Shown in pieces: positions 3,667 to 27,317 of a DNA stretch of 64,000 bases. The position numbers and the translations under genes are program-made. This DNA is from Luteimonas sp. GTDB taxonomy: Bacteria > Pseudomonadota > Gammaproteobacteria > Xanthomonadales > Xanthomonadaceae. The stretch spans positions 62,001 to 126,000 of the forward strand of contig JANPZU010000002.1 in NCBI GenBank assembly GCA_024707405.1, read 5' to 3'. Numbering within the stretch: position 1 is the first letter of the stretch; every line of letters begins with the position of its first letter. The notes under the pieces were generated by a model. That model did no database searches. It had not been told where the DNA came from and was given only the letters and a program-made list of their open reading frames with translations.

Positions 3667-3680
3667 TGAAAACGATTACA
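3667..3680. promoter_or_regulatory. Predicted LacI-family operator upstream of the GH3 gene
   Basis: TGAAAACGATTACA is one of five copies of a CG-centred 14-bp near-palindrome (consensus TGWAANCGRTTWCA) in this window. It overlaps a TACATT hexamer that could serve as the -10, as at the regulator's own promoter. The AANCGNTT core is typical of LacI-family operators. It is assigned to the LacI-family regulator at 6.4 kb by proximity and motif sharing. Confidence 0.65.
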
Positions 3681-3711
3681 TTTGCCGTCCACGCGATGCC
3701 GGGAGGGCGCC

Positions 3712-6326: not shown

Positions 6327-6356
6327 TTTACACCTGCTTCTGAAAACGGTTACATT
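6327..6356 (+). promoter_or_regulatory. Promoter and autoregulatory operator of the LacI-family gene
   Basis: TTTACA (6327-6332) and TACATT (6351-6356) are separated by 18 bp and resemble a sigma-70 promoter. The operator TGAAAACGGTTACA (6341-6354) fills the spacer and overlaps most of the -10. A repressor bound here would block RNA polymerase, so negative autoregulation is predicted. Confidence 0.6.
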
Positions 6357-6385: not shown

Positions 6386-7411
6386 ATGAGCGTCACGATC
6401 AAAGACGTCGCACGTCAGGCCAATGTCTCGGTTGCGACCGTTTCGCGGGCGCTCAATGGCCACCAGAACGTCGCCGAGGACGTCCGCAAGCGCGTCCTCA
6501 GCGTCGCCAGCGAGCTTCGCTACAGCCCGCACCATGCCGCCCGCAGCCTCAGCAGCCGCCGCACCAACACCATCGGCGTGGTGTTGCCGGATCTTTACGG
6601 CGAATTCTTCTCCGAGCTGATGCGCGGGATCGACCAGGTCGCCCGTGAGCGCGGGCTGCACCTGCTGGTCTCGAGCTACCACGGCAACCCCCGGGAGCAG
6701 GGCGATGCGCTGCGGGCGATGCGTGGCCGCGTCGACGGCCTGCTGCTGATGTCCCCGTTCGTCGGGAATGCCGACTTCATCGCCGAAAACCTCGCGCAGC
6801 AGATGCCCGTCGTGCTCATGAACACCGCGACGCCCGCTTCCGGCCATGCCACCCTGTCGGTCGATGGCTACGGCGGTGCGGTAACGATGACGCGGCACCT
6901 GGCCGAGGCCGGCTATCGGCGGATCGCGTTCATCACCGGCCCGGAAGGCAACTTCGATGCCAGCGAGCGGCTGCGCGGCTATCGCGACGCCATGGCCGAA
7001 GTGCTGCCCGGCATCGAGCCATGGGTGTTGCAGGGTGATTTCGACGAGGCCTCGGGGCATCGCGCAGGCCAGGCATTGCTGGCGGCACCCGAGCGCCCGG
7101 ATGCCGTGTTCGCCGCAAACGACATGATGGCGCTGGGCTGCCTGTTCGCCTTCAACCAGGCCGGCGTCCGCGTGCCTGCCGACATTGCGCTGGCCGGGTT
7201 CGACGACATCCCGCTTGCACGCTACGTACACCCGGCGCTGACGACGATGCGCGTCGAGATCGCCGAACTTGGCGCGCGCGCGATCCGGATGCTGCTGGAT
7301 ACGGCGAACGGGCCGGCGCCCCAGGCGTCGCTCTCGCCGGTGCTGGTCGTTCGCGAATCGAGTGCCGGCCCGCGTGGTCGAGGAGAGGCGATGCCGACGC
7401 GATCGGGTTGA
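6386..7411 (+). CDS. LacI-family transcriptional regulator of the sugar locus
   Basis: 341 aa from the ATG of MSVTIKDVARQANVSVATVSRALNG, the classic LacI helix-turn-helix plus hinge (residues about 1-58). A periplasmic-binding-protein-like effector domain follows: NTIGVVLPDLYGEFFSELMRGID, VDGLLLMSPF, then PDAVFAANDMMALGCLFAFNQAGVRVPADIALAGFDDIPLARYVHPALTTMR. The start with GGAGGG upstream is preferred over the track's GTG seven codons earlier. It lies between the GH3 and receptor genes, and five copies of a LacI-type operator flank genes of the same pathway, one in its own promoter. The effector is probably an oligosaccharide or glucose derivative from the pathway; this is inferred from context. 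Confidence 0.92.
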   Translation: MSVTIKDVARQANVSVATVSRALNGHQNVAEDVRKRVLSVASELRYSPHHAARSLSSRRTNTIGVVLPDLYGEFFSELMRGIDQVARERGLHLLVSSYHGNPREQGDALRAMRGRVDGLLLMSPFVGNADFIAENLAQQMPVVLMNTATPASGHATLSVDGYGGAVTMTRHLAEAGYRRIAFITGPEGNFDASERLRGYRDAMAEVLPGIEPWVLQGDFDEASGHRAGQALLAAPERPDAVFAANDMMALGCLFAFNQAGVRVPADIALAGFDDIPLARYVHPALTTMRVEIAELGARAIRMLLDTANGPAPQASLSPVLVVRESSAGPRGRGEAMPTRSG

Positions 7412-7533: not shown

Positions 7534-10500
7534 ATGAAACGCAAGCTCCATACCGCTGTCAGACTCAATCGCAGCCTGCTGTGCTGCGCGTTGGCGGGTT
7601 GCATGCTGATGGCCGCGCCGCACGCGTTCGCGCAGTCCACCTCGGCGACGCTGCAGGGACGGGTATCGGCGGATTCGGCGCCGGCCACCGATGCGCGCGT
7701 CACTGCCACCAACCTTGCCACCGGCCTCACGCGCACCGTGCAGACCAGCGCGAGCGGCGGCTACAACGTCGGCGGCCTGCCGCCAGGTACGTACCGCATC
7801 GACGTGACCGCGGGCGGGCAGACCACGTCGCGCAACATCACCCTGGCCGTGGGCCAGACCGCGACGCTCAACCTTGGCGTCGGCGGCGAAGCCGAGACCG
7901 CCGCGGCGGAAGCGCGCGACCTTGACACCGTTGTGGTGACCGGCGCGGCGATGGTGGAGACTAAGACCTCGGAGATCGCAACGTATGTGTCGGCAAAGCA
8001 AATCGATGCACTACCGCAGGCATCCCGCAATTTCCTAGCCTTTGCAGATATTGTTCCAGGCGTAACGTTTCGAACTGGCGCGGATGGGTCTACGTCGCTG
8101 CGCAGCGTCCACAGCTCTCCAGCGGGATTAACGTCTTCATCGATGGCGTCGGCCAGAAGGATTATGTGCTCAAGGGCGGAGTGACTGGCCAAGATTCCAG
8201 TCGCGGCAATCCATTCCCCCAATTGGGCATCGCCGAGTACAAGGTCGTGACTTCGAATTACAAAGCGGAGTACGACCAGTTGAGTAGTGCGGGAATTACT
8301 GCGGTCACTCGGTCGGGCACCAATGAGTTTTCGGGTGAATTCTTTTGGGACAAGACCTCAGATGACTGGCGCAAGCCGACCCCTGCGGAGTCAGTGGCAG
8401 GAAACAAGATACCTTCGAGCGAGGAGCAGTACGGAGTCGCGTTTGGTGGCCCCATCGTCCGTGATCTCATGCATTTCTTTGTGACCTACGAGGCCAAGGA
8501 GTACAACTCGCCACGCACGATTACCCCGGGGCGCAACCTAGCGATCGAAGATCTCCCGCCGCAGTTCCAAGATGCAGCGAGGCAGCCGGCTGCTGTTCCT
8601 TTCAAGGAGGATCTCTACTTTGGCAAGTTAAGTTGGACACCCGGCGAAGCTCATCTTGTTGAATTGACTTTCAAGCGACGTGAAGAAGATGAGGTAACCA
8701 ATGTCGGCAATGGGCCGAATACACTTGAGCGGGCGACGCTCAAGACCGGAGAGGAAACGCGTGTTGATTTGCGATATCAGTTCAGTTCAATGAATTGGTT
8801 GAATGATGCTCACGTTACCTTTGAAGAAGCAAACTTCGCACCACGTCCAGCAACACTCACAAACGGTGTCCGGCTCTTTATTCCCAGGCAAGGCCAAGAG
8901 ACCGTCAATAACCCCGACATGGATCTGGTTCTGAGTCTGGGAGGCGGGGGTGACTTTCAGAGCAAGGGGCAGAAGGGCTATTCGTTCCAGAACGACCTGA
9001 CATTCTATGGATGGGAGGCGCACACCATCAAAATGGGTGTGAAGTATAAGAAGATAGATATCAGTGCCTTTGAGCAGTCACCGTTCAGCCCGCAATTCGA
9101 ATACGACATAACCCAGAGCACGACGATTCCTTACTTCGTCCAGTTCACGGCCTCCGGGAACAATTTGCCGACTACTGTGGAGTCAGATGCGACACAGTTC
9201 GGAATATATATCCAAGATGATTGGATCGTCACGGATCGTCTCACACTCAATCTCGGTATCCGATGGGATTACGAGAAGAACCCAAGTTATGAGAGGCATG
9301 TAACCCCCCGACACGCTATCCAGCAGGCTGCGCGAGTATGTAAGTACGCGGCCGAACATGGATTACGACATCGAGGATTACATCAGCAATGGCGGCAACC
9401 GTAGTTCCTTTAAAGGTGGACTTGCACCTAGGTTGGGGTTCTCTTACGACCTCACCGGGGGGCAAAGACACGTCGTTTTTGGTGGCGCAGGGCGTTCCTA
9501 CAACAGGAACCAATTCGATTACCTCGCATATGAGCAGTACAGACTCGCGTTTCAGCGGTACCAGTTTTATTTCAACGCACCTGGTCACGATTGCTCTGAC
9601 CCGGAACGGCCAAGGAATCCATGCATTGATTGGGATCCATCTCTGCTAAACCCTGATGCGCTCGCCGATCTGATCGTACCCGGAAGCAATTTCGGTGCTG
9701 AGGTCTTCCTGCTCAACAATGATTTGAAGACGCCATATTCCGATCAGTTCAGCTTAGGAATAAGGAATACATTCGCCGTGTTAGGGCATGACTGGAGCTC
9801 ATCAGTCACTCTTCAGCACATTAGGAGTCATGATGGAATTCTGTTCTCGATCGGAAATCGCAGGCAGGATGGCAGTTTCTATCCGCCTGGAGTCGAGTTT
9901 GGGGAATTCTCCAGGAGCCGATTTGCCCGGTTACAACCGATTTTTTCGGGGAGACAATGCGGTGGAAACAAGGCTGAATGCAGTCTTGGTTTCTCTAGAC
10001 AAGCCGTATACAGAATCATCGCGCTGGGGCAGTAGCTTCGCTTATACATACAACGAAGCGACGGAAAATCGAGGAAGCTCCGATATCTTCACCTTCGACT
10101 ATCCAAATCTGGACAATATTGGCTTCATCCGTTCGACCGGGATTCCGAAACACAAGATTGTCGCAACCGGCATAGGTGAATTCATGGGGCTCATGCTTTC
10201 AGGGAAAGTTACGTGGACTAGTCCTCCCGGCAATACGGGTCTGAATTGTTTCGAGGGCGTCGACCCTGGGGCTTGCAACGTTGTCGGACGCTTTGAAACC
10301 TACTATTTCAAAGATCAGGATTTCTTTCAGCTCGACCTTGCTGCACAAAAGGAATGGGATACAGGTGGCGGTATCAAGTTTCGCATCCGAGGTGATGTGC
10401 TCAATGTGACAAACGAAATGAACTACACTGATTTTGGCAACTTCATCGGCGTTGGTGGCGTGGTGAATCCCGATTTCGGTCGGCGTACGGGGCTCAACAT

Positions 10501-10549
10501 CACCGGCCCGACCCGCACCTTCAAACTATCGTTCGGTCTGGATTGGTAA
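7534..10549 (+). pseudogene. TonB-dependent oligosaccharide receptor, mosaic and frameshifted
   Basis: Conceptually about 1,000 aa. It starts MKRKLHTAVRLNRSLLC with a signal peptide ending near AFAQ. A carboxypeptidase-regulatory-like domain follows (TLQGRVSADSAPATDARVTATN...GLPPGTYRIDV, residues about 36-118), then a TonB box (DLDTVVVTG), a plug (FIDGVGQKDYVLKGG, GITAVTRSGTNEFSGEFFWD) and a beta-barrel ending ...TRTFKLSFGLDW with the terminal aromatic typical of outer-membrane proteins. This resembles the oar-like receptors of Xanthomonadaceae. The frame changes three times: near 8104-8115, in a run of six C at 9304-9309, and at TTTGGGG 9898-9904. Single-base corrections restore the frame each time (one base lost at the first, one gained at the other two). 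From about 7960 to 10436 the codon use is visibly more AT-rich than in all neighbours. It may be a decayed gene or an assembly error; see findings. Confidence 0.85.
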
Positions 10550-10631: not shown

Positions 10632-12266
10632 ATGCACAAAAAATTCCTGCAACCACTTCCTTATCTGTTCTTGTCGCTCCTGCTGGCCATCGCACTGGGC
10701 GGGTGTCGTCAGGCGCCTGCACCGGTGGATGCCGATGCGCCGAAGCCCGGCCCGATCCCGCAGGTGGTGGTCGAGCCCGAAGTAGAAGCCGCGCCGGCAC
10801 GGCCGGAACTGCCGCCACTGTTCCGGGACATCGAGCGGCGCACGTTCCAGTTCTTCTGGGACACCACCAACGACGTCAACGGACTCACGCCGGATCGCTA
10901 TCCATCGCGCCCGTTTTCCAGCATCGCCGCCGTCGGCTTCGCGCTGACCGCATATCCCATCGGTATCGAGAATGGCTGGGTCAGCCGTACGCAGGCGGTG
11001 GATCGCACGCTGACCACGCTGAAGTTCCTGCATGCGGCCCCGCAAGGCCCTGCGGCCACTGGCACGGCCGGGCACAAGGGCTTCTTCTACCACTTCATCG
11101 ACATGACCGACGGCCATCGCTACAACTCGTGGGTCGAGTTGTCGAGCGTCGACACCGGTCTGATGATGATGGGCGTGCTGTTCGCGCAGTCTTATTACGA
11201 TGGCGACGATCCGCGTGAAGTCGAGATCCGCGAGCTGGCGGACAAGCTGTACCGCAACGTGCAGTGGCCTTGGCTGCAGCAGCGCAAGCCGCTGATCTCG
11301 ATGGGCTGGTATCCAGACAGGGGCTTCATCCCGCACGACTGGAATGGATACGACGAGGCGATGCTGGTCTACATCCTGGCGCTTGGTTCGCCGACGCATC
11401 CGGTCGAGCCCGAAGCGTGGGAAGCATGGACGCGCAGCTACGGCAACGAATGGGGCGTGTTCCAGGGGCAGGAGTACCTGAGCTTCGCGCCGCACTTCGG
11501 CCACCAGTACTCGCATACCTGGATCGATTTTCGCGGTATCCGCGATACGTACATGCGCGATCGCGGCATGGACTATTTCGAGAACAGCCGGCGTGCAACC
11601 TACGCGCAGCGGGCCTATGCCATCGAGAACCCGATGCAATGGAAGGGCTACGGTGAGAATGTCTGGGGGCTGACCGCCAGCGATGGCCCGCAGCACACCA
11701 CGCAGACCTTCCGCGGCGAACAGCGCGAGTTCCGCCACTACAGTGCGCGCGGCGCGGGCCTGAGCAATGCGTTCGACGACGGCACCATCGCACCGACGGC
11801 GGCGGTGGCCTCCATCGCGTTCGCACCGGAAATCGTGATTCCCGCGACCGAGGAAATGCATCGTCGCTACGGCGAGTTCCTGTATTCCAGCTACGGATTC
11901 CTGGATTCCTTCAATCCGAGTTTCGATTTCGACATCCCGGTCAAGACCGGGCGCATCGTGCCGGGGCAGGGTTGGGTGGCGAGCGATTACATCGCCATCG
12001 ACCAGGGGCCGATCCTGGCGATGATCGCCAATTACCGGAATGACTTCGTCTGGAACGTGATGAAGAAGAATCCGTACATCCGCAAGGGACTGGAACGTGC
12101 CGGATTCACCGGCGGCTGGCTGGCGCCGCCGGATGGCCCGCAGACCTCCGGTGCGCCGGATCCCGAAGCTGCCGCGGCCGAGGACATCGGCAAGGCGCAG
12201 CAGCGCATGCCGCTGCCAGCAGACGCGCAGCCGGTCGAACCGAGGGCCTCCGAGCCGCCGCAGTAG
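10632..12266 (+). CDS. GH144-like (glycoamylase-like domain) lipoprotein
   Basis: 544 aa. The first residues end in a lipobox (LLLAIALGGC, Cys25), so it is probably an envelope lipoprotein; a Pro-rich linker follows. From about residue 55 to 490 it matches the glycoamylase-like domain (PF10091): RTFQFFWDTTNDVNGLTPDR, FSSIAAVGFALTAYPIGIENGWVSR, GWYPDRGFIPHDWNGYDEAMLVYILALGSPTHP, YGENVWGLTASDGP, and a C-terminal IDQGPILAMIANYR. The domain is an (alpha/alpha)6 toroid. Characterised members in family GH144 are endo-beta-1,2-glucanases, so cleavage of a beta-1,2-glucan is the leading hypothesis, but many PF10091 proteins are uncharacterised. It begins an operon with the binding protein, two permeases and a large secreted protein. 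Confidence 0.85.
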   Translation: MHKKFLQPLPYLFLSLLLAIALGGCRQAPAPVDADAPKPGPIPQVVVEPEVEAAPARPELPPLFRDIERRTFQFFWDTTNDVNGLTPDRYPSRPFSSIAAVGFALTAYPIGIENGWVSRTQAVDRTLTTLKFLHAAPQGPAATGTAGHKGFFYHFIDMTDGHRYNSWVELSSVDTGLMMMGVLFAQSYYDGDDPREVEIRELADKLYRNVQWPWLQQRKPLISMGWYPDRGFIPHDWNGYDEAMLVYILALGSPTHPVEPEAWEAWTRSYGNEWGVFQGQEYLSFAPHFGHQYSHTWIDFRGIRDTYMRDRGMDYFENSRRATYAQRAYAIENPMQWKGYGENVWGLTASDGPQHTTQTFRGEQREFRHYSARGAGLSNAFDDGTIAPTAAVASIAFAPEIVIPATEEMHRRYGEFLYSSYGFLDSFNPSFDFDIPVKTGRIVPGQGWVASDYIAIDQGPILAMIANYRNDFVWNVMKKNPYIRKGLERAGFTGGWLAPPDGPQTSGAPDPEAAAAEDIGKAQQRMPLPADAQPVEPRASEPPQ

Positions 12267-12276
12267 ACTCCCGCGC

Positions 12277-13545
12277 ATGCGCAAGCCCGTCGCCCTGCTG
12301 GCACTCCTGTTCGCGTTCGCCTTGGGCGCGTGCGCGAAGGGCGACGGCACCACGACCATCCGCTTCTGGGCAATGGGCAAGGAAGCGGAAGTCGTGGCGG
12401 AGTTGATCCGAGACTTCGAACGCGAACATCCGGGCATCCGGGTCGAAGTGCAGGCGATCCCGATGACCGCCGCGCACGAAAAGCTCCTGACGGCGTGGGC
12501 CGCGGATGGTTTGCCGGACATCTGCCAGCTCGGCAACACCTGGATCCCAGAGTTCGCCACGCTGGGCGCACTGGAACCCTTGCAGTCGCATGTCGATGCC
12601 TCCGCCGTCATTGATGAGGGCGATTATTTCCCCGGCATCTGGGACACCAGCGTCGTCGATGGCGAACTGCTGGGCGTGCCGTGGTACGTCGATACCCGGC
12701 TGCTGTTCTACCGCAAGGACATCCTGGCCGAAGCCGGGTTCGACACGCCGCCGACCACGTGGGCCGAGTGGGAGCGAGCGATGGCGGCGATCAAGCGCAA
12801 CGTCGGGCCGGATCGCTACGCCATCCTGCTGCCGGTCAACGAGTTCGAGCAGCAATTGTCGCTGGCCTTGCAGCAGGACGACCCGCTCCTCCGCGACGAC
12901 GACGGTTACGGCAATTTCCGCAGCCCCGGTTTCCGCAAGGCGCTGGCGTTCTACGCCAACATGTTCGACCAGGGCTGGGCGCCGAAGATGTCGGAGACCG
13001 AGATCTCCAACGTCTGGGATGAATTCTTCAACGGTTTCTACGCGTTCTACCTGTCGGGGCCATGGAACATCCGAGAGTTCAGGCGACGCCAACCAGCCAG
13101 CCTCGAAGGAAAGTGGTCGACGATGCCGTTGCCCGGCCCGGATGGCCCCGGTGCAGGCATCGCCGGCGGCGCGAGCTTGGTGCTGTTCCGCTCGTCCGAG
13201 CACAAAGCCGAGGCGTGGTTGCTGGTGGAATATCTGTCGCGTCCCGACGTGCAGGAGCGTTTCCATGCATTGATCGGCAACTTGCCGCCACGTCGCAGCA
13301 CGTGGGAGTCGCCGGCCCTGCAGCAGGATGAACTGGCGACGGCGTTCCGCGACCAACTGGAGCGGGTAAAACCGGTGCCGAAGGTGCTGGAGTGGGAGCG
13401 CATCGTGCAGGAAATGCGCTTGGCGACCGAGCGCGTGGTGCGCGGCGGTCAAGCGCAGGAGAGTGCCTTGTCCGATCTCGATGCGCGTGTCGACGGCATC
13501 CTCGAAAAGCGCCGCTGGGTGCTGGAACAAGGGGCCGAACGATGA
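12277..13545 (+). CDS. ABC transporter sugar-binding lipoprotein
   Basis: 422 aa with lipobox LLFAFALGAC (Cys19). This is a family 1 extracellular solute-binding protein: TTIRFWAMGKEAEVVAELIRDFEREHPGIRVEVQAIP at the N-terminus, then LPDICQLGNTWIPEF, LLGVPWYVDTRLLFYRKDILAEAGF and GAGIAGGASLVLFRSSEHKAEAWLLVEYLSRPDVQERF. It delivers an oligosaccharide to the permeases encoded next. The ATG is only 10 bp after the previous stop. A TAGACT hexamer seven bases before the ATG could allow an additional, leaderless transcript. A REP element separates it from the first permease gene. Confidence 0.93.
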   Translation: MRKPVALLALLFAFALGACAKGDGTTTIRFWAMGKEAEVVAELIRDFEREHPGIRVEVQAIPMTAAHEKLLTAWAADGLPDICQLGNTWIPEFATLGALEPLQSHVDASAVIDEGDYFPGIWDTSVVDGELLGVPWYVDTRLLFYRKDILAEAGFDTPPTTWAEWERAMAAIKRNVGPDRYAILLPVNEFEQQLSLALQQDDPLLRDDDGYGNFRSPGFRKALAFYANMFDQGWAPKMSETEISNVWDEFFNGFYAFYLSGPWNIREFRRRQPASLEGKWSTMPLPGPDGPGAGIAGGASLVLFRSSEHKAEAWLLVEYLSRPDVQERFHALIGNLPPRRSTWESPALQQDELATAFRDQLERVKPVPKVLEWERIVQEMRLATERVVRGGQAQESALSDLDARVDGILEKRRWVLEQGAER

Positions 13546-13562
13546 GGGATGCTCCGCTTCTC

Positions 13563-13638
13563 GTAGAGCCGAGTTTGCTCGGCTGCTTTCGTGGGGGGCA
13601 ATTTGACTGCCGAAACAGCCGAGCAAGCTCGGCTCTAC
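13563..13638. repeat. GTAG-type REP pair inside the sugar ABC operon
   Basis: GTAGAGCCGAGTTTGCTCGGCTGC and, inverted, GCCGAGCAAGCTCGGCTCTAC flank a 30-bp centre. Each arm can itself fold and the two can pair with each other. It resembles the SMAG REP family of Stenotrophomonas, which begins with GTAG. Its position between the binding-protein and permease genes suggests a role in mRNA processing or stability. Confidence 0.85.
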
Positions 13639-13659
13639 GCATGGCTTGCGGAGCGACGC

Positions 13660-14538
13660 ATGCGCGCTAGCCTGGCCGGCTGGGTCTTCGCCGCACCTGC
13701 ACTGGTCGTGCTGCTGGTGTTCTTCGGCCTGCCGGTGCTGGCGGCGTTGCTGCTCAGCCTGACCGATTTCGATCTCTACGCGCTGGCCGACAGCCGCAAC
13801 CTGCGGTTCGTTGCGTTGGGCAACTACATCGAGCTGCTGCAAACGCCGATGTTCTGGAAGGCACTCGGCAACACCACGTACTTCGTCGTGGTCGGCGTAC
13901 CGTTGTCAATCGCGATTTCGCTGGGCGCGGCATTGCTGCTCAACGCCAAGGTGGCGCGCTTCAAGCCGCTGTTCCGTACCGCGCTGTTCGCACCCGTAGT
14001 GACCACGCTGGTGGCAGTAGCGGTGATCTGGCGGTATCTGTTCCATGCCAGCTACGGGTTGGTGAACTGGGCGTTGGGCCATGTCGGCATCGGGCCGATC
14101 GACTGGCTCGGCGACCCGAACTGGGCGATGCCGACGATCATGCTGTTCGCAGCCTGGAAGAACTTCGGCTACAACATGGTGATCCTGCTGGCAGGGTTGC
14201 AGGCGATCCCGCAGGATCTGTACGAGGCCGCGCGCATCGACGGTGCATCGAAATGGCGCCAGTTCCTGCACATCACCTTGCCGATGCTGGGGCCAGTGCT
14301 GCTGGTGGTCGGCGTGATCACCGTTTCCGGCTACTTCCAGTTGTTCGCCGAGCCCTACGTGATGACACGCGGAGATCCGCTGCAGAGTACGGTCAGCGTG
14401 CTGTATTACATGTTCGAGGAAGGCTTCAAGTGGTGGAACCTCGGCCGCGCGTCGGCGGTGGCATTCCTGCTGTTCCTCATCATCCTGGCGGTGACGGTGG
14501 TTCTGGTGCGCGCCGGGCGCAGGCGGGCGCTGGTATGA
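13660..14538 (+). CDS. Sugar ABC transporter permease, MalF type
   Basis: 292 aa from the ATG of MRASLAGWVFAAPALVVLLVFFGLPVLAALLLSL; GGAG lies upstream, while the track's earlier start lies within the REP. There are six predicted transmembrane helices. The cytoplasmic EAA loop YEAARIDGASKWRQFLHITLPML, which docks the ATPase, is intact. It forms a heterodimer with the next gene, whose ATG overlaps this stop as ATGA. No ATPase gene is adjacent; the MalK/UgpC-type ATPase at 26.1 kb is the likely partner. Confidence 0.93.
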   Translation: MRASLAGWVFAAPALVVLLVFFGLPVLAALLLSLTDFDLYALADSRNLRFVALGNYIELLQTPMFWKALGNTTYFVVVGVPLSIAISLGAALLLNAKVARFKPLFRTALFAPVVTTLVAVAVIWRYLFHASYGLVNWALGHVGIGPIDWLGDPNWAMPTIMLFAAWKNFGYNMVILLAGLQAIPQDLYEAARIDGASKWRQFLHITLPMLGPVLLVVGVITVSGYFQLFAEPYVMTRGDPLQSTVSVLYYMFEEGFKWWNLGRASAVAFLLFLIILAVTVVLVRAGRRRALV

Positions 14539-15380
14539 GCGAAGCGATGCGCGATGTCGGTGAATCCCGGCTGCATGCGTGGCTGGTCAACGGTGCCTTG
14601 TTGTCGCTGGCCTTGGTGAGCCTGGCACCGCTGCTCTGGATGGTCTCGGTTTCGTTCATGCCGATGGGCGAGGCCAGCCGCTTCCCGCCACCGCTGCTGC
14701 CGGGCGAGGCGACGCTCGACAACTACCGCAACCTGTTCGCGCGTACCGATGCCGCGCGCAACTTCGTCAATAGCCTGTTCGTCGCCGGGACGATCACGGT
14801 GCTGTCGCTGGTGGTCAATGCGATGGCCGGTTATGCCTTCGCCAAGTTGCGCTTCGCAGGACGTGATCGCATCTTTCAGTTGTTGTTGGCGGCACTGGTC
14901 ATCCCTGCGCAGGTCGCGATGCTGCCGTTGTTCCTGCTGATGAAGGAACTCGGCCTGGTGAACACCTATGCCGGCGTGATCGTCCCGGCGCTGGCGACGG
15001 TATTCGGCATCTTCCTGGTGCGCCAGTATGCACGCAGCATCCCGGACGAATTGCTGGAAGCGGCGCGCATCGACGGTGCAGGGGAGTTGCGAATCTTCTT
15101 CAGCATCGTGCTGCCGATGCTCAAGCCGGTGCTGGTGACGCTGGCGATCTTCACCTTCATGGCGGCGTGGAACGACTTCATGTGGCCCTTGATCGTGCTG
15201 ACCGACCAGGAGCACTACACCTTGCCGGTGGCCCTCGCCGCGCTGTCGCGCGAGCACATCATGGAGGTCGAGATGATGATGGCCGGTGCGGTGGTCACGG
15301 TACTGCCGGTGCTGCTGCTGTTCCTGCTGCTGCAGCGGTACTACATCCAGGGTTTGTTGCTTGGGAGCGTGAAAGGCTGA
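14535..15380 (+). CDS. Sugar ABC transporter permease, MalG type
   Basis: 281 aa, starting at the ATGA overlap (MSEAMRDVGESRLHAWLVNGALLSLALVSLAPLLWMVSVSF). Six hydrophobic segments and the EAA loop LEAARIDGAGELRIFFSIVLPML identify the MalG-type inner-membrane component. AAWNDFMWPLIVLTDQEHYTLPVAL is typical of this family. Its stop overlaps the start of the next gene (TGATG), so the secreted protein after it is translationally coupled to the transporter. Confidence 0.93.
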   Translation: MSEAMRDVGESRLHAWLVNGALLSLALVSLAPLLWMVSVSFMPMGEASRFPPPLLPGEATLDNYRNLFARTDAARNFVNSLFVAGTITVLSLVVNAMAGYAFAKLRFAGRDRIFQLLLAALVIPAQVAMLPLFLLMKELGLVNTYAGVIVPALATVFGIFLVRQYARSIPDELLEAARIDGAGELRIFFSIVLPMLKPVLVTLAIFTFMAAWNDFMWPLIVLTDQEHYTLPVALAALSREHIMEVEMMMAGAVVTVLPVLLLFLLLQRYYIQGLLLGSVKG

Positions 15381-18300
15381 TGATCGTCGTGAATACCGTC
15401 CGTGGAATCGTGGTGTTGCTGGCAGTGGCCGCAACGCAGGTACAGGCACAGGAAGCGGCGAAGCTGCTTGATGGCTTCGAGGACGCCTCGAAGTGGCGCG
15501 TGGTCGCTTCCAACCAGGTCAGCGGCAGCATCCGCAGCATCGATGGCGCGGACGGCAAGGCACTCTGCCTGGATTACGATTTCAACGGGGTGTCCGGTTA
15601 CGTCGGCATCCAGCGCGACCTGGCGCTGCGCTATCCGGAGAACTACCGGTTCGGATTCAAGCTGCGCGGCGACTCGCCGGACAACGACCTGCAGTTCAAG
15701 CTGGTCGATGCCAGCGGGGACAACGTCTGGTGGGTGAACCGGCCGAAGTACGACTACCCGAAGGCGTGGACGGATGTCCGCTACCGCAAGCGCCACATCA
15801 GCAAGGCATGGGGGCCTGATCCGGATCCGGCGTTGCGCGCGACCGAGAAGGTCGAATTCACGCTCTATGCGAATGCCGGCGGCCGCGGCGCGGTCTGCTT
15901 CGACACGTTGACGCTGGAGGAACTCGCGGTCGATGACGGCTCGCCGCTGGTGCCGGTCACTGCGACGGCGAGCGCGTCCACGCAGCAAGCGATGTCCGTC
16001 GCCGATGGCAATGACTCGACGGCGTGGGCTGCACCTGCGGGGCCGCAACGGCTGGTGCTGGATCTGGGACACGCGCGCGAATTCGGCGGGCTGCGGTTGC
16101 AGTGGCTGCCGGGTCGCCACGCGACACGCTATGGCGTTTCCCTGTCCGAGGATGGCGACGACTGGCGCAGCGTCCGTCACGTGTCGGGCAGCAACGGCGG
16201 CGTGGATTGGATTGCATTGCCGGAATCCGAAGCCAGATTCGTGTCCATCGACCTGCAGGAAGGTGGCGATGCTGGATACGCCCTGTCTTCGGTGGGCATC
16301 CAGCCGATCGAATTTTCCGAGAGCCAGAACGATGTCGTCATGGCGATGGCGAAGGAAGCGCCGAGGGGTTGGTTCCCACGCGGTTTTTCCGGTGAGCAGC
16401 CGTACTGGACGATCCTCGGCCTGGACGGTGGCTACCAACAGGGGTTGATCGGTGAGGATGGCGCGGTCGAAGTTGCCAAGGGCGGTTTCAGCATCGAACC
16501 GTTCGTGCTGGTGGATGGCAAGCTGGCCACCTGGCATGACGTGGATGTTTCGCAGTCCTTGCAGGACAACTACCTGCCGATCCCGAGCGTGCGCTGGAAG
16601 CGCAACGACCTCGACCTGGAGGTCACGGCCTTCGCGCATGGCGAACCGCGCCAGTCGCGACTGGTGGCGCGTTATCGGCTTACCAACCCCGGTCGCCGTG
16701 CCCGCGACTACACGTTGGCGCTCGCGGTGCAGCCGTACCAGGTCAATCCGCCGCGACAGTTCCTCAACACGCCCGGTGGCGTGAGCCGGATCGAATCGTT
16801 GTCGTTCGAGGGGGCAACCGCATCGGTCGCGGGCGTTCCCAAGGTGTTTTCCAAGCAGATCCCCGATGCGATGTTCGCCACGCCCTTCGATGGCGGCATG
16901 GTGGTGACCCATCTCGCATCGGGCCGCTTCCCCGCGGTGACTCGGGTGCAGCACGACGAGACCGGACTCGCATCCGGCGCGATGCTGTACCGCATGCGCT
17001 TGGGGCCATGGGAAACGCGCGAGATCCAGGTGATGGTGCCGATGACCGGCAACGCCGGGCTGGAGCGCCGCTGGTGGGATGCGGAGGTATTGCAGGCCGG
17101 CGTGGCCGAAACATGGCGGACGAAGCTCGACCGCGTCAGGATCGAGGTGCCGCAAGCCGCGCAGCCGGTCGCCGATGCGTTGCGCACGGCGCTGGCGCAC
17201 ATGCTGATCTCGCGCATCGGGCCGCGCCTGCAGCCGGGGACGCGTGCCTATGCCCGTAGCTGGATCCGTGATGGCGCGATGATCTCCGAAGGCCTGTTGC
17301 GCATGGGACGCGAGGACGTGGTGAAGGACTACGTCGAGTGGTACGCGCCGTACCAGTTCGAGAACGGCAAGGTGCCGTGCTGCGTGGACGACCGCGGCAG
17401 CGACCCGGTGCCGGAGAACGACAGCCACGGCGAATTGATCTACAACATCGCCGAGTACTGGCGCTATACCAACGACACGGCCTTCCTCGAGAAGATGTGG
17501 CCGCACGTGCTGGGTGCGTTCGAGTACATGGAAGAACTGCGCGCCAGCGTACGCACCGAGGCCAATCGCGCGGTCAATCCTGCGTTCTACGGGATGATGC
17601 CGGCATCGATCAGCCACGAAGGGTATTCGGCCAAGCCGATGCATTCGTACTGGGACAACTTCTGGTCGCTCCGCGGTTACAAGGATGCGGTCGAAGTGGC
17701 GCAGGTGCTCGGCAAGACCGATGTGCTGCCCAGGCTGGTCGCGGCGCGCGACGAGTTCCGCCAAGACCTTCATGCCTCCTTACTCGCGGCGGCGCAGTTG
17801 CATGGCATCGACTTCCTGCCGGGTGCCGCGGAGCTTGGTGATTTCGACCCGACCTCGACCACCATCGCATTGGCTCCGGGCGGCGAGCAGGACTGGTTGC
17901 CACGCGACTTGCTGGACAACACCTTCGAACGCTACTGGCGCGAGTTCGTCGAGCGTCGCGATGGCCAGCGCGAATGGAAGGACTACACGCCCTACGAATG
18001 GCGAAACGTCGCGGCGATGGTGCGACTGGGCTGGCGCGGTCGTGCGAAGGAAGTGTTCGACTGGTTCTTCGACCACCGCGCCCCGCATGCATGGAACCAG
18101 TGGGGCGAAGTGGTGTCGTCCACGCCGCGCGAACCGTTCTTCCTCGGCGACCTGCCGCATGCGTGGGTGGCATCGGACTTCATGCGCTCGGCCATCGAGA
18201 TGTTCGTGTATCCGCGCGAATCGGACGACAGCATCGTGCTGGCGGCCGGTCTGCCTCCGGAATGGCTGGAAGGCAAGGGTGTGTCGATCGACGGCATGCG

Positions 18301-18523
18301 CACGCCGCGCGGCAACCTGCGGTTCTCGCTGCGGCGCGAAGGCGACCGGCTGCTGCTGGATGCCGGCGAGGGACTCGAATTGCCACCCGGCGGACTGGTC
18401 TTGCCGTGGCCGTACGAGGGCACGCCGGGGGCGACCACGCTCAATGGGCAGCCCGCGCAATGGGAGGGGCAGGCGTTGCGGATCACCACGCTGCCCGCCA
18501 GCGTGAGTATCGAAGTGCCGTAA
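15380..18523 (+). CDS. Large secreted multidomain protein: CBM modules plus six-hairpin glycosidase-like domain
   Basis: 1,047 aa from an ATG overlapping the permease stop; the track's N-terminal 71 residues are out-of-frame permease sequence. The signal peptide is MIVVNTVRGIVVLLAVAATQVQA. Residues about 25-185 form a beta-sandwich CBM-like module (LLDGFEDASKWRVV...VCFDTLTLEEL). Residues about 190-315 resemble an F5/8-type C (discoidin, CBM32-like) domain (STAWAAPAGPQRLVLDLGHAREFGGLRLQW). A supersandwich-like region follows, then an (alpha/alpha)6-like domain with GTRAYARSWIRDGAMISEGLLRMGR, KVPCCVDDRGSDPVPENDSHGELIYNIAEYWRY and a C-terminal PPEWLEGKGVSIDGMRTPRGNL. The last resembles the beta-sandwich end of GH63/GH78/GH15-like proteins. 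I cannot assign a CAZy family. Probably an exported glycosidase acting on the transported glycan. Confidence 0.75.
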   Translation: MIVVNTVRGIVVLLAVAATQVQAQEAAKLLDGFEDASKWRVVASNQVSGSIRSIDGADGKALCLDYDFNGVSGYVGIQRDLALRYPENYRFGFKLRGDSPDNDLQFKLVDASGDNVWWVNRPKYDYPKAWTDVRYRKRHISKAWGPDPDPALRATEKVEFTLYANAGGRGAVCFDTLTLEELAVDDGSPLVPVTATASASTQQAMSVADGNDSTAWAAPAGPQRLVLDLGHAREFGGLRLQWLPGRHATRYGVSLSEDGDDWRSVRHVSGSNGGVDWIALPESEARFVSIDLQEGGDAGYALSSVGIQPIEFSESQNDVVMAMAKEAPRGWFPRGFSGEQPYWTILGLDGGYQQGLIGEDGAVEVAKGGFSIEPFVLVDGKLATWHDVDVSQSLQDNYLPIPSVRWKRNDLDLEVTAFAHGEPRQSRLVARYRLTNPGRRARDYTLALAVQPYQVNPPRQFLNTPGGVSRIESLSFEGATASVAGVPKVFSKQIPDAMFATPFDGGMVVTHLASGRFPAVTRVQHDETGLASGAMLYRMRLGPWETREIQVMVPMTGNAGLERRWWDAEVLQAGVAETWRTKLDRVRIEVPQAAQPVADALRTALAHMLISRIGPRLQPGTRAYARSWIRDGAMISEGLLRMGREDVVKDYVEWYAPYQFENGKVPCCVDDRGSDPVPENDSHGELIYNIAEYWRYTNDTAFLEKMWPHVLGAFEYMEELRASVRTEANRAVNPAFYGMMPASISHEGYSAKPMHSYWDNFWSLRGYKDAVEVAQVLGKTDVLPRLVAARDEFRQDLHASLLAAAQLHGIDFLPGAAELGDFDPTSTTIALAPGGEQDWLPRDLLDNTFERYWREFVERRDGQREWKDYTPYEWRNVAAMVRLGWRGRAKEVFDWFFDHRAPHAWNQWGEVVSSTPREPFFLGDLPHAWVASDFMRSAIEMFVYPRESDDSIVLAAGLPPEWLEGKGVSIDGMRTPRGNLRFSLRREGDRLLLDAGEGLELPPGGLVLPWPYEGTPGATTLNGQPAQWEGQALRITTLPASVSIEVP

Positions 18524-19716: not shown

Positions 19717-20375
19717 TCAGGCCTTGCGCGCGGCGGCAGCGATGGCCGCGGCCTTCGCGGCGCTGTCGCGCACCTTGTCCCAATCGCCGGCGGCCAGCCA
19801 GGCCTTGGGCAGCATCCACGAGCCACCGACGGCGACTACGTTCGGCTCGGCCAGGTAATCGGCGGCGCTGGATTCGTTGATGCCGCCGTTGGCGCAGATG
19901 CGCAGTTCTGCAAGCGGGCCGGCGAGTCCCTTGACCATCGCCAGCCCACCGACGGCATTGCTGGGGAAGAGCTTGCAGACGCGAAAACCCAGCGCCATCA
20001 GTGCGAGGAATTCCGTCGGCGTGGCAGCGCCCGGCACTGCCGGTACGGGCGCGCGTGCCAATGCTTCGGCAATCGGTGCCGGTGTGCCAGGCGTGACCAG
20101 GAAGTCGGCGCCGAGATCGATCGATGCCGTGATCTGTTCGGTCGACAGGATCGTTCCCGCGCCGATGAGGATGTCGGGCCGCGCCTTCTTCATAGCCGCC
20201 AGCGCCGGCAATGCGGCCGGTGTGCGTAGTGTCAGTTCAAGCACCTTCAGTCCGCCCTCGGCGAGGGCATCGGCCATGCGCAGGCCCTGGTCGACGCTGT
20301 CGACGGTGAGTACCGGCATGATGCCGGCATCGAGCAGCACCTGTTCGGCGCGATCTTGCAGGGTGTCGATCGACA

Positions 20376-20376
<1 letters not shown>
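19717..20376 (-). CDS. eda: KDPG aldolase (2-dehydro-3-deoxy-phosphogluconate aldolase)
   Basis: 219 aa from MSIDTLQDRAEQVLLDAGIMPVLTV. It cleaves 2-keto-3-deoxy-6-phosphogluconate to pyruvate and glyceraldehyde 3-phosphate. Family signatures are GGLKVLELTLRTPAAL with the active-site Glu, FLVTPGTP, VCKLFPSNAVGG with the Schiff-base Lys, and ICANGGINESSAADYLAEPNVVAVGGSWM. The C-terminus is a run of Ala and Lys. Its start overlaps the edd stop by one base (TGATG), making it the last gene of the Entner-Doudoroff operon. Confidence 0.96.
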
Positions 20377-22295
<1,919 letters not shown>

Positions 22296-22347
22296 TGGCG
22301 TGGGGGCTGGGGAGCGGGGGTGCCACGGTGCGGGTGTGCGCAGTCGC

Positions 22348-23094
22348 TCACGGGCACCAGTGGATGTGTAGCGGTGGGCCGGACGTGGTGAAGGCGACGC
22401 GGACGGGGTACTCGCGTGGATCGTTGCCCTCAAGCACGCGGTCGAGCAGCTTGCGCTTGCGTTCGCCGCGAATCAGCAGCAGTCGTGTATGCGCCGGCGC
22501 GAGTCCGGCGGGCGTGAGGCTGATGCGTCGCAGCAGCTTGCCGGCGACGGGGCAGCCGGTGGCATCGACGGATACGTAGGCAGACTTCGATTCCAGTGCC
22601 TTGTCCAGTCCCTGCATGCCGGGGAAGAGCGATGCGGTGTGGCCGTCCTCGCCCATGCCCAGCACGACAACGCCGGGTGGGTTCTGCGCATGCAGATTGG
22701 CCGCGTTCACCGATTCCTCGATGTTGCGGCCGGCGCGGGTCAGGGTTTCGAAGCGGGCCTTTGCAGCCTTGTTCTGCAGCAACGTCTCGCGCACGAGCCG
22801 GGCATTGCTGTCGGGATCGTCGGGCAGCAACCAGCGCTCGTCGACCAAGGCAACGTCAATGCGATCCCAGTCCAGTGGCGCCTTCGACAGGGCCTCGTAG
22901 ACCGGTGCGGGCGTGCTGCCACCGGACAACAGCAGGCGAGTACGAGGTTTCTGTTGCAGGTCGCGGGCCAGCACGGACGAGATCGCCACCGCCGAGCCCC
23001 ACGTCCACTGGGTCTGGGATTCGTAGGTGAACAGGCGCACGCGCGAACCGCCGATCACTTCGGTGGCGGTTTCCGCGTCGCGCCCGGCATTCAT
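22348..23094 (-). CDS. pgl: 6-phosphogluconolactonase
   Basis: 248 aa from MNAGRDAETATEVIGG. It hydrolyses 6-phosphogluconolactone between Zwf and Edd. DevB/NagB-like fold motifs are LLLSGGSTPAPVYEAL, VALVDERWLLPDDPDSNARL and VVLGMGEDGHTASLFPG. The track's longer ORF reads back into glk out of frame. Its ATG overlaps the glk stop as ATGA, so the two are coupled. Confidence 0.95.
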   Translation of the reverse strand: MNAGRDAETATEVIGGSRVRLFTYESQTQWTWGSAVAISSVLARDLQQKPRTRLLLSGGSTPAPVYEALSKAPLDWDRIDVALVDERWLLPDDPDSNARLVRETLLQNKAAKARFETLTRAGRNIEESVNAANLHAQNPPGVVVLGMGEDGHTASLFPGMQGLDKALESKSAYVSVDATGCPVAGKLLRRISLTPAGLAPAHTRLLLIRGERKRKLLDRVLEGNDPREYPVRVAFTTSGPPLHIHWCP

Positions 23095-24101
23095 CGTTGC
23101 TCGCCTGTCGCCGCTTGGCGTGCAATGGCGGCCGTGCCGAGCAGTCCTGCATGACGGTGCACGACCGCCATCGACGGCACCCGGGCCATGTTGGGCGAGA
23201 AGCGACCCTTGTGCTCGAAGCGTTGGCGGAAGCCCGAATGCTGGAGTGCATCGAGCATCTTCGGCACCAGCCCGCCGGTGAGGAACACGCCGTCCCACGC
23301 GCCCAGCGTGAGCACCAGGTCGCCGGCGATGGAACCGAACACCGCGCAGAACACGTCGACTGCACGCATGCAGCGCGGATCGCCGGCCTTGGCACCTTCG
23401 GTGATGTCGGCCGGTTGCATCGGGCCGGGATCCACGCCCGCGATTTCGCTCAACGCGCGATGGATGTTGACCAGCCCGGGGCCGCAGATCAGGCGCTCGT
23501 TGGACACGCGGCCGAACTGCGCCGAGAGGCGATCGAGGATCGCGATTTCCTCCGGTGTGCCGGGCGGGAAGCTGACGTGTCCACCTTCGGTTTCCAGCGG
23601 GTACTGGTGGCCGTCGCGCACGATCAGCGCGCCAACGCCCAGTCCTGTGCCGGGGCCGATGACCGCATAGGTGCGGTGTTGGCAATCGGGTTGCTTGCGC
23701 CAGCCACTGCCACCGATCTGCTGCATGTCCTCGGGTTGCAGCAGCGGGATCGCCATGGCTTGCGCGGCAAAATCGTTGATCAGTTCGACGCCGTCGAAGC
23801 CGAGGCGTTCGGCGGTGCGCTTGCGCGAAATCACCCACGGGTGGTTGGTGATGCGGGCTTCGTCGCCATCGACCCGGCCCGCCACCGCGAACACGCCCTG
23901 CCGGATGGCGTCCGCCGCGATGCCGGACGTTTCGAGGTAATGGCGCGCGGCATCGGCAAGCGACGGGAAATCGGCGACCGCGAATCCCTGCACGCTGTCG
24001 ACCAGCAGCGGATGCTCGGCGCCGGTGTCGGCCAGCGCGAAGCGCGCGTTGGTGCCGCCGATGTCGGCGAGCAGGACGCGGTTGCCCGGCACCTGCGTCA
24101 C
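23091..24101 (-). CDS. glk: Glucokinase
   Basis: 336 aa with a GTG start at a GTGA overlap with the zwf stop (VTQVPGNRVLLADIGGTNARFAL). This is the bacterial Glk family (not ROK): phosphate-binding LLADIGGTNARFAL, HPWVISRKRTAERLGFDGVELINDFAAQAMA with the catalytic Asp, YAVIGPGTGLGVGALI, and ETEGGHVSFPPGTPEE. It phosphorylates cytoplasmic glucose, here plausibly released by the GH3 enzyme or imported directly. Placement between zwf and pgl commits its product to the Entner-Doudoroff route. Confidence 0.95.
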   Translation of the reverse strand: MTQVPGNRVLLADIGGTNARFALADTGAEHPLLVDSVQGFAVADFPSLADAARHYLETSGIAADAIRQGVFAVAGRVDGDEARITNHPWVISRKRTAERLGFDGVELINDFAAQAMAIPLLQPEDMQQIGGSGWRKQPDCQHRTYAVIGPGTGLGVGALIVRDGHQYPLETEGGHVSFPPGTPEEIAILDRLSAQFGRVSNERLICGPGLVNIHRALSEIAGVDPGPMQPADITEGAKAGDPRCMRAVDVFCAVFGSIAGDLVLTLGAWDGVFLTGGLVPKMLDALQHSGFRQRFEHKGRFSPNMARVPSMAVVHRHAGLLGTAAIARQAATGEQR

Positions 24102-25516
24102 TTGCGTCCTCCGTTGACCGGCAGGGTGTTGGGCAGGAAGGCGGCTGCGTCCGGCGGCCCCCACGATCCGGCCGGGTATTCGCCGATCGGCGTGGCGGCG
24201 CTGCGCCAGGCGTCGCTGATGCTGTCGATCCAGCGCCATGCGGCCTCGACTTCGTCGTCTCGCACGAACAGCGTCTGGTCGCCCTTGAGCGCATCGATCA
24301 TCAGTCGTTCGTAGGCGATGCGGCGCTTGGGCGGCAGCATCGACAGGTCGAGCGGCATCGGTTCGAGTTCGGTCGCGCCCCATTCCGGTGCGGCCAGGCT
24401 GCCCATCAGGGTGAGCTCGATGGTTTCCTCCGGCTGCAGCCGCATGCGCAAGCGGTTGGGCGTGGTGTGCGCCTTGTCCGGGCGGTCGAACACCCAGTGC
24501 GTGACCGGCTTGAAGTTCACGATCACTTCGGTGGCGCGCGAGGGCATGCGTTTGCCGGTGACCAGGCGGAAGGGCACGCCGGCCCAGCGCCAGTTGTCGA
24601 TCCAGGCGCGCAGGGCGACGAAGGTTTCCACTTCGTAGTCCTTGCCGAAGCCCTTGGCCGCCTTGCCGTCGACCACGCCGTCGACGTAACGACCGCGCAC
24701 GCTGTCATTGGCAGCGTCGGCCACGGTCATCGGGCGCAACGCGCGCAACACCTTGCGCTTCTCGTCACGGATGCTGTCGGCGTCCAGCGCGGCCGGCGGC
24801 TCCATCGCGATCAGTGCCAGCAACTGCAGCACGTGGTTCTGCACCATGTCGCGCAGCGCGCCGTAGTCGGCGTAATAGCCTTCGCGGCCATCCACGCCTG
24901 CGGTTTCGGCGACCACGATGTCCACCGATTCGATCCAGCGGTGCTGCCACACGGCTTCGAGCAGGGTGTTGCCGAAGCGCAGCGCCAGCAGGTTCTGTAC
25001 CGGTGCCTTGCCGAGGTAGTGGTCGATACGGAAGATCCGCGACTCGTCGAGCGCCGACTTGAGCGTGGCGTCGATCGCGCGCGCGGATGCCAGGTCGTGG
25101 CCAATGGGCTTTTCCAGCACCAGGCGCGAGGGCGCTTCGAGCAGGCCGGCGGCTTTCAGGCCGCGGCAGGCCGGCTCGAACAGGTTGGGTGGCGTGGACA
25201 GGTAGCTGACCGCCGGGCGGTCGGCGTATTGCGACAGCGCCGCGGCGACGCCATCGATGTCCTGCAGGTCGAGCGCGTGGTAGTGGATGCGACCGAGCAG
25301 GTCGTCGATCGCAGCGCTGTTGCGGTCTTCGCCGGACTGGATGCGTCCGCGAAGCCAGTCGCGGAACCCCTGGTCGTCGTGTTCGGTGCGCCCGATCGCG
25401 ACCACGCGGAAATCCGCGGGCAGCAAACGGTCGCGCAGGAGATGCAGCAGCGATGGGAACAGATAGCGCTGAGCGAGGTCGCCAGTCGCGCCGAACAACA
25501 ACAGGGTGTCATGCAT
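24098..25516 (-). CDS. zwf: Glucose-6-phosphate 1-dehydrogenase
   Basis: 472 aa from MHDTLLLFGATGDLAQRYLFPSLLHLL, with the nucleotide-binding GATGDLA. The substrate motif RIDHYLGKAPVQNLLALRFGN and the earlier LVLEKPIGHDL are intact. It oxidises glucose 6-phosphate to 6-phosphogluconolactone with NAD(P). It heads the zwf-glk-pgl-edd-eda operon, in which three junctions overlap. The upstream 585-bp gap separates it from the divergent ABC ATPase gene, and the LacI-type operator there lies about 460 bp from this start. Confidence 0.96.
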   Translation of the reverse strand: MHDTLLLFGATGDLAQRYLFPSLLHLLRDRLLPADFRVVAIGRTEHDDQGFRDWLRGRIQSGEDRNSAAIDDLLGRIHYHALDLQDIDGVAAALSQYADRPAVSYLSTPPNLFEPACRGLKAAGLLEAPSRLVLEKPIGHDLASARAIDATLKSALDESRIFRIDHYLGKAPVQNLLALRFGNTLLEAVWQHRWIESVDIVVAETAGVDGREGYYADYGALRDMVQNHVLQLLALIAMEPPAALDADSIRDEKRKVLRALRPMTVADAANDSVRGRYVDGVVDGKAAKGFGKDYEVETFVALRAWIDNWRWAGVPFRLVTGKRMPSRATEVIVNFKPVTHWVFDRPDKAHTTPNRLRMRLQPEETIELTLMGSLAAPEWGATELEPMPLDLSMLPPKRRIAYERLMIDALKGDQTLFVRDDEVEAAWRWIDSISDAWRSAATPIGEYPAGSWGPPDAAAFLPNTLPVNGGRK

Positions 25517-25976: not shown

Positions 25977-25990
25977 TGTAAACGATTACA
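25977..25990. promoter_or_regulatory. Predicted LacI-family operator upstream of the ABC ATPase
   Basis: TGTAAACGATTACA is the best palindrome of the five sites (one mismatch between halves). It is 110 bp before the ATPase ATG, and links this gene to the sugar locus 10-22 kb away. Confidence 0.7.
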
Positions 25991-27188: not shown

Positions 27189-27317
27189 CCCCAGCGCGTA
27201 TCACACGGCATCCTGCAGGCATTGACGCAGGCTTGCCGCGTCGGACTGCATCATCGTGGCTTGCATGCGTCGCAGCACCCAGCGGGGTGCCGTGTGCACG
27301 CTTCCTCCCCCAGAACG

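What the first reader, a model, noticed from the sequence alone, without database searches (positions are those of the whole stretch)
10632..18523. Candidate beta-1,2-glucan (or related glycan) utilisation system with an unassigned secreted enzyme
The operon couples a PF10091/GH144-like lipoprotein, an ABC importer and, by TGATG overlap, a 1,047-aa secreted protein; GH3 and TonB genes share its regulation. GH144 enzymes described so far are endo-beta-1,2-glucanases and some GH3 enzymes act on sophoro-oligosaccharides. The route would end in the adjacent Glk/Entner-Doudoroff operon. No canonical beta-1,2-glucan locus with this gene combination is known to me in this bacterial group. Substrate identity is an inference.
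Basis: partly seen in the sequence, partly recalled or inferred. Interest (0 to 1): 0.65.

Follow-up and report, generated by a model that had tools for sequence, protein, structure and literature searches.

The report
Beta-1,2-glucan scavenging locus with unclassified glycosidase
This is a sugar-scavenging gene set, conserved across the Xanthomonas/Luteimonas family and also found in another bacterial class, that cuts beta-1,2-glucan (a rare bacterial sugar polymer), imports the pieces and burns them, and it usually carries one secreted enzyme that matches no known enzyme family well enough to be named.

Summary
The GH144 is 73% identical to XcSGL (XCC2207, PDB 8XUL), a characterised beta-1,2-glucanase inactive on starch, laminarin and CM-cellulose; signature residues are kept. 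After Xac-'MalE' (3UOR), the binding protein's nearest solved relative is Lin1841, which binds beta-1,2-gluco-oligosaccharides. A LacI-type operator occurs five times in the whole genome, all here: before GH3, LacI, the TonB receptor, this operon and an ABC ATPase gene. Not right: that the gene combination is unusual. It is conserved through Xanthomonadaceae and recurs in another class. P1047 occurs in 73 of 150 family genomes, all with GH144, 72 of them side by side; at least four cassettes lack it, so it is accessory. Its model is a beta-sandwich plus (alpha/alpha)6 barrel like GH94/GH15; no family model passes cut-off, and two glutamates fit to be catalytic never vary in 91 sequences. My guess, untested: it cuts the alpha-1,6 link in Xanthomonas-type cyclic beta-1,2-glucan. 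The TonB gene is frameshifted here.

The parts
3667..3680 (.). LacI-type operator TGAAAACGATTACA before GH3
   Evidence: one of five genome-wide matches
3682..6000 (+). GH3 beta-glucosidase, BglX type (exact start uncertain)
   Evidence: NF011678 806 bits, cut-off 666; PDB relatives include 5XXL and Lin1840 4ZOA
6341..6354 (.). operator before lacI
   Evidence: same site before LacI in 47 of 80 relatives
6386..7411 (+). LacI-family regulator
   Evidence: PF00356, PF13377
7483..7496 (.). operator before the TonB gene
7534..10549 (+). TonB-dependent receptor (CarboxypepD_reg + OMP barrel), broken by three frame changes near 8112-8133, 9320-9352 and 9903-9953
   Evidence: tblastn of an intact relative (L044) gives four pieces in three frames; GC 0.49-0.55 against about 0.65 around it; no intact paralogue in the genome
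10602..10615 (.). operator before the GH144 operon
   Evidence: exact pattern before GH144 in 53 of 80 relatives
10632..12266 (+). GH144 endo-beta-1,2-glucanase, lipoprotein
   Evidence: 73% identical to XcSGL/8XUL; E242/F289/Y370 = XcSGL E239/F286/Y367
12277..13545 (+). ABC solute-binding lipoprotein, probable beta-1,2-gluco-oligosaccharide binder
   Evidence: 72% to 3UOR, 34% to Lin1841 5YSB at 227 bits; all other solved relatives score about 120 bits or less
13603..14538 (+). ABC permease, UgpA/MalF type (start uncertain)
   Evidence: PF00528
14535..15380 (+). ABC permease, UgpE/MalG type
   Evidence: PF00528
15380..18523 (+). P1047: secreted protein; N-terminal beta-sandwich, F5/8C (CBM32-like) domain, beta-supersandwich, (alpha/alpha)6 barrel; candidate catalytic E747 and E910
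   Evidence: AlphaFold pLDDT 86; Foldseek GH94/GH15; invariant carboxylates in 91 sequences
19717..25516 (-). Adjacent eda-edd-pgl-glk-zwf genes, probable sink for glucose; not shown to be co-regulated
   Evidence: translations; eda and edd found next to the cassette in 38 of 80 loci, many of which end too soon to show them
25977..25990 (.). operator before the ABC ATPase gene
   Evidence: site before ATPase in 23 of 38 relatives showing the gene
26100..27188 (+). MalK/MsmK-type ABC ATPase, probable energy subunit of the importer
   Evidence: start located; a MalK-type ATPase is directly downstream of P1047 in L196

Best explanation
The locus is a LacI-controlled beta-1,2-glucan scavenging system. 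Supported by homology: a surface or periplasmic GH144 lipoprotein cuts beta-1,2-glucan into short oligosaccharides; a lipoprotein SBP and two permeases import them; GH3 trims them to glucose. Inferred: the ATPase at 26100 powers the importer, the TonB receptor carries fragments across the outer membrane (in relatives; it is broken in this assembly), the LacI protein is relieved by a beta-1,2-gluco-oligosaccharide or glucose, and glucose enters Glk/Entner-Doudoroff. Inferred with low confidence: P1047 is an inverting exo-glycosidase, with E747 as acid and E910 as base, that removes what GH144 and GH3 cannot, most likely the alpha-1,6 junction of alpha-1,6-cyclised beta-1,2-glucan made by Xanthomonas-type OpgD. 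The stated confidence is for the system; for the alpha-1,6 role of P1047 it is about 0.35.
For: GH144 73% identical to XcSGL, with signature residues kept; XcSGL is specific for beta-1,2-glucan with no activity on starch, laminarin, lichenan or CM-cellulose (PMC12102758). SBP nearest to Lin1841 apart from 3UOR; Lin1841 binds Sop3-5 (PMC12369401). Five operators genome-wide, all in this locus, conserved in relatives. GH144, SBP, permeases and P1047 in one order in 78 of 80 loci (the other two are contig-limited), with LacI and TonB also shown in 66. The cassette is in another class, in two loci (L194, L196) near a GH1 beta-glucosidase and in L196 next to a MalK-type ATPase. P1047 co-occurs with GH144 in 73 of 73 genomes, 72 within 9 kb. 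P1047 carboxylates invariant; hhalign to GH15 96% probability. XccOpgD makes a glucan with one alpha-1,6 bond (PMC11228985).
Against: No enzyme or binding data exist for this strain. Lin1841 identity is only 34%, and its ligand contacts were not compared. For P1047, Foldseek ranks GH94 (beta-linkages) as high as GH15 (alpha-linkages), so the anomer is open. The exclusion of GH94 by hhalign rests on six sequences, four of them cyclic glucan synthases. At least four related cassettes lack P1047. The TonB receptor is broken here. The genome shows no OpgG/OpgD or OpgH, so the glucan would have to come from outside.
Confidence: 0.82

Rival explanations
1. The locus uses alpha-glucans, as the labels 'putative glucoamylase' (PF10091) and 'MalE' (3UOR) suggest, and P1047 is a glucoamylase-like enzyme for maltodextrin.
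For: Pfam name of PF10091; [quoted passage not shown] P1047 has a weak match to oligosac_amyl TIGR01577, E 2e-7.
Against: XcSGL has no detectable activity on soluble starch. 3UOR's specificity is listed as 'Unknown' in a later comparison, and the SBP is much nearer to Lin1841 than to any maltose binder.
Confidence: 0.05
2. P1047 is an exo-acting beta-1,2-glucosidase or sophorohydrolase that shortens GH144 products from the non-reducing end, not an alpha-linkage enzyme.
For: The top Foldseek group is GH94, which acts on beta-linkages. An exo-acting sophorose-releasing enzyme is known among GH144 homologues, so the step exists elsewhere.
Against: Profile comparison finds GH15 and not GH94. The cassette often has a GH3 or GH1 beta-glucosidase nearby, so such a step would be partly redundant.
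Confidence: 0.35
3. P1047 is a non-catalytic glycan-binding partner that retains beta-1,2-glucan at the cell surface.
For: F5/8C domain related to CBM32; a second N-terminal beta-sandwich; the gene is dispensable.
Against: Sixteen acidic positions in the sandwich/barrel half are invariant or nearly so, including E747 and E910, across 91 sequences with paralogues down to 30% identity.
Confidence: 0.1
4. The system recycles the cell's own periplasmic glucan rather than scavenging from others.
For: In the family, P1047 and MdoG co-occur: 52 of 73 genomes with P1047 have it against 5 of 77 without, though shared ancestry confounds this.
Against: The window's own genome shows no MdoG, no OpgH-type family match over cut-off and no cyclic glucan synthase. 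The genome is 92.9% complete, so absence is not proven.
Confidence: 0.15

Closest known systems
XcSGL / XCC2207, GH144 beta-1,2-glucanase (PDB 8XUL)
   Same: 73% identity, same signature residues, same bacterial family
   Different: Studied as an isolated enzyme; I found no account of its gene cluster, importer or P1047 partner in the held papers
Listeria innocua lin1839-1841 cluster (SOGP GH94, GH3 beta-glucosidase, Sop-binding SBP)
   Same: Related SBP and GH3, same presumed sugar
   Different: Uses a GH94 phosphorylase; the window locus has none and has GH144 and P1047 instead
Ignavibacterium album SGL gene cluster (PMC8861115)
   Same: GH144 enzymes, Sop-binding SBP homologue, TonB-dependent import proposed
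   Different: Has a GH35 transglycosylase and a GH94; P1047 not reported there
Streptomyces griseus SGR_2423-2427 (PMC12369401)
   Same: SBP homologous to Lin1841, SGL-clan endo-enzyme, dedicated beta-glucosidase; the two GH1-bearing cassettes found here resemble it
   Different: GH193 and GH1 in a Gram-positive; no TonB receptor reported
GH94 phosphorylases and GH15 glucodextranase/dextran dextrinase
   Same: Fold of the catalytic half of P1047 (Foldseek E 1e-13 to 1e-10)
   Different: About 8-13% identity; no Pfam or NCBIfam GH94 or GH15 model passes its cut-off for P1047; P1047 is secreted and carries a CBM32-like domain

Membership tests
GH144 (SGL clan) | PF10091 domain over curated cut-off | tested here: met
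   295 bits, cut-off 27
GH144 (SGL clan) | Clan residues XcSGL E239, F286, Y367 | tested here: met
   E242, F289, Y370 in the window protein, alignment
GH144 (SGL clan) | Acidic residue at the CpSGL E142 position (candidate base) | tested here: inconclusive
   D174 aligns with the acidic residue of BDI_3064; CpSGL itself was not aligned residue by residue
GH144 (SGL clan) | Endo-beta-1,2-glucanase activity | not testable with these tools
   Known for the 73% identical XcSGL
Lin1841-type beta-1,2-gluco-oligosaccharide SBP | Closest relationship to Lin1841 among characterised SBPs | tested here: met
   227 bits against about 120 or less for all other solved SBPs except 3UOR, whose ligand is unknown
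Lin1841-type beta-1,2-gluco-oligosaccharide SBP | Conserved ligand-contact residues | not tested
   The 2018 structure paper is not held
GH3 BglX | NF011678 over cut-off | tested here: met
   806 bits, cut-off 666
GH15 (for P1047) | GH15 family model over cut-off | tested here: not met
   No GH15 model in Pfam up to E 0.01; TIGR01577 30 bits, cut-off 820.7
GH15 (for P1047) | Fold and two catalytic glutamates | tested here: inconclusive
   Foldseek hits 9JU0 and 1UG9; hhalign 96%; E747 and E910 invariant, but their equivalence to GH15 residues is a motif reading, not a superposition
GH94 (for P1047) | GH94 family model | tested here: not met
   No GH94 family in Pfam; hhalign found no match to a small GH94 set
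GH94 (for P1047) | beta-sandwich plus (alpha/alpha)6 fold | tested here: met
   8BOU E 1.4e-13, TM 0.56 on the target

The most novel reading that the evidence does not exclude
P1047 founds a new glycoside hydrolase family that cleaves the alpha-1,6 junction of alpha-1,6-cyclised beta-1,2-glucans, the step needed to consume completely the immune-evading cyclic glucan of Xanthomonas; the surrounding cassette is then a complete cyclic-glucan scavenging system.
Probability: 0.3. Interest if true: 0.72.

Novelty: new variant of a known kind. Interest (0 to 1): 0.5.

Why it matters
Beta-1,2-glucans are signals in plant infection and symbiosis, yet how bacteria consume them is poorly known. Here a complete, regulated and widely conserved consumption cassette is defined in a family that includes major crop pathogens, around an enzyme already characterised in isolation. 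It suggests that the crystallised Xanthomonas citri 'MalE' (3UOR), or at least its close relative here, is misnamed, and it points to one enzyme with no assigned family or substrate, tightly linked to the pathway and testable with reagents that already exist.

Tried and rejected
GH192 instead of GH144: considered from memory for XCC2207, rejected after reading PMC12102758, which places XcSGL in GH144. AlphaFold of P1047 without an alignment was useless (pLDDT 40); repeated with 69 sequences. PDB sequence search with the P1047 profile matched only the F5/8C domain. Context of the 30-33% identical paralogues (L058-L061) gave no substrate hint beyond LacI/TonB neighbours and one GH43. The published LacI regulon survey (PMC4052901) has no Xanthomonas hit in its main text. 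Searches for papers on this cluster found none describing it. The check for intact TonB relatives used fixed words and caught only one, enough to place the frame changes.

Full report
Observation. The operon begins with a GH144 lipoprotein gene (10632-12266), follows after 10 nt with a solute-binding lipoprotein gene (12277-13545), two permease genes, and P1047 (15380-18523), whose ATG overlaps the stop of the second permease. Related loci recovered by search are mostly Luteimonas, Pseudoxanthomonas, Xanthomonas, Stenotrophomonas and Lysobacter, with Luteimonas nearest.

Substrate. The GH144 protein is 73% identical to XcSGL of Xanthomonas campestris. XcSGL hydrolyses beta-1,2-glucan and none of the other polysaccharides examined, soluble starch included (PMC12102758). 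The clan signature residues are E242, F289 and Y370. The SBP's best solved relative is 3UOR (72%), listed with unknown specificity in a later paper (PMC7676653); the second is Lin1841 (34%, 227 bits), a binder of Sop3-5 (PMC12369401); all others score about 120 bits or less. GH3 is a BglX-type beta-glucosidase over its curated cut-off, which alone does not fix the linkage. Together these make beta-1,2-glucan the likely substrate; this is homology, not an assay.

Regulation. TGWAANCGNTTWCA occurs five times in the genome, all here. The sites lie before GH3, lacI, the TonB gene, the GH144 operon and an ABC ATPase gene about 110 nt downstream of the fifth site. In 80 relatives the exact pattern is before GH144 in 53, before LacI in 47 and before the ATPase in 23 of the 38 showing that gene. 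This names the missing importer ATPase. That the adjacent LacI protein binds the site is inferred from conservation and position. Zwf starts 461 nt from the fifth site, so control of the Entner-Doudoroff genes is possible but not indicated.

Conservation. GH144, SBP, both permeases and P1047 are found in one order in 78 of 80 named loci; the other two are cut by contig ends. LacI and TonB are also shown in 66. Across 150 family genomes, 73 have a P1047 orthologue; all 73 have GH144 and 72 have the two within 9 kb, the last being split over contigs. The cassette also occurs in genomes of another class of the phylum: complete in G500, G222 and G316, and without a receptor directly attached in G574. 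A GH1 beta-glucosidase gene lies nearby in the G316 and G574 loci, and a MalK-type ATPase gene directly follows P1047 in G574. Four family genomes (G017, G092, G013, G142) keep TonB, GH144, SBP and permeases without P1047 beside them, so P1047 is an accessory step. In G142 the GH3 gene sits inside the cluster.

P1047. Pfam finds only F5/8C-type domains over cut-off. A model from 69 sequences has pLDDT 86 and pTM 0.86: an N-terminal beta-sandwich, the F5/8C domain, a beta-supersandwich and a helical barrel. Foldseek matches are GH94 phosphorylases, GH15 dextran dextrinase and glucodextranase, GH116, GH65 and GH78 at about 8-13% identity. Profile comparison favours GH15 (96%) and not GH94, though both comparison sets were small. 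E747 and E910 are invariant in 91 sequences, including paralogues at 30-33% identity and the other class. By motif reading from my own knowledge of these families, E747 sits where GH15 and GH94 keep the general acid, and E910 where GH15 keeps the base; this was not confirmed by superposition. A secreted location argues against phosphorolysis. The anomer and linkage cut are unknown.

Why alpha-1,6. [quoted passage not shown] GH144 and beta-glucosidases are not expected to cut that bond, so a consumer of such rings needs another enzyme; an accessory GH15-like glycosidase, tied to GH144, fits. This is an inference with a probability of about 0.35. An exo-acting beta-1,2 enzyme is as likely.

This strain. 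The genome shows no MdoG family protein, no glycosyltransferase of the OpgH type over cut-off and no cyclic glucan synthase, so the strain is probably a scavenger; the genome is 92.9% complete. The TonB gene is split by three frame changes relative to an intact relative, has a GC of 0.49-0.55 where relatives' copies have 0.60-0.68, and has no intact paralogue. Either the receptor has decayed or the assembly has errors there; the low GC favours decay. If real, the outer-membrane step of the pathway is impaired in this strain.

Verdict. A real, well-conserved beta-1,2-glucan utilisation cassette: a new variant of a known kind, with one enzyme that has no family or substrate assigned with the tools available. 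CAZy itself could not be searched, so P1047 may already be listed there.

Noticed in passing
window 7534-10549: TonB receptor gene broken by three frame changes with GC near 0.50; intact in a related genome (L044).
   Followed up: partly
window 12277-13545: The 72% identical Xanthomonas citri protein 3UOR is called MalE; its relationship to Lin1841 suggests it binds beta-1,2-gluco-oligosaccharides rather than maltose.
   Followed up: partly
L058, L059, L060, L061: A second P1047-like protein (30-33% identity) exists in several Xanthomonadaceae; in L058 and L061 it is next to its own LacI and TonB genes. Substrate unknown.
   Followed up: partly
L197, L198, L199, L201: GH144-ABC-TonB cassettes without P1047 beside them; natural comparisons for its role.
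   Followed up: partly
window 26100-31269: The ABC ATPase gene carrying the fifth operator is followed by OtsB, a GH15 trehalase-like gene and OtsA on the same strand, so trehalose genes may share its transcript.
   Followed up: no
G000:C6:101306-102496 (L168): The genome's single GH94 (808-aa open frame) lies elsewhere; not identified further.
   Followed up: no
[quoted passage not shown] the window genome lacks it.
   Followed up: no
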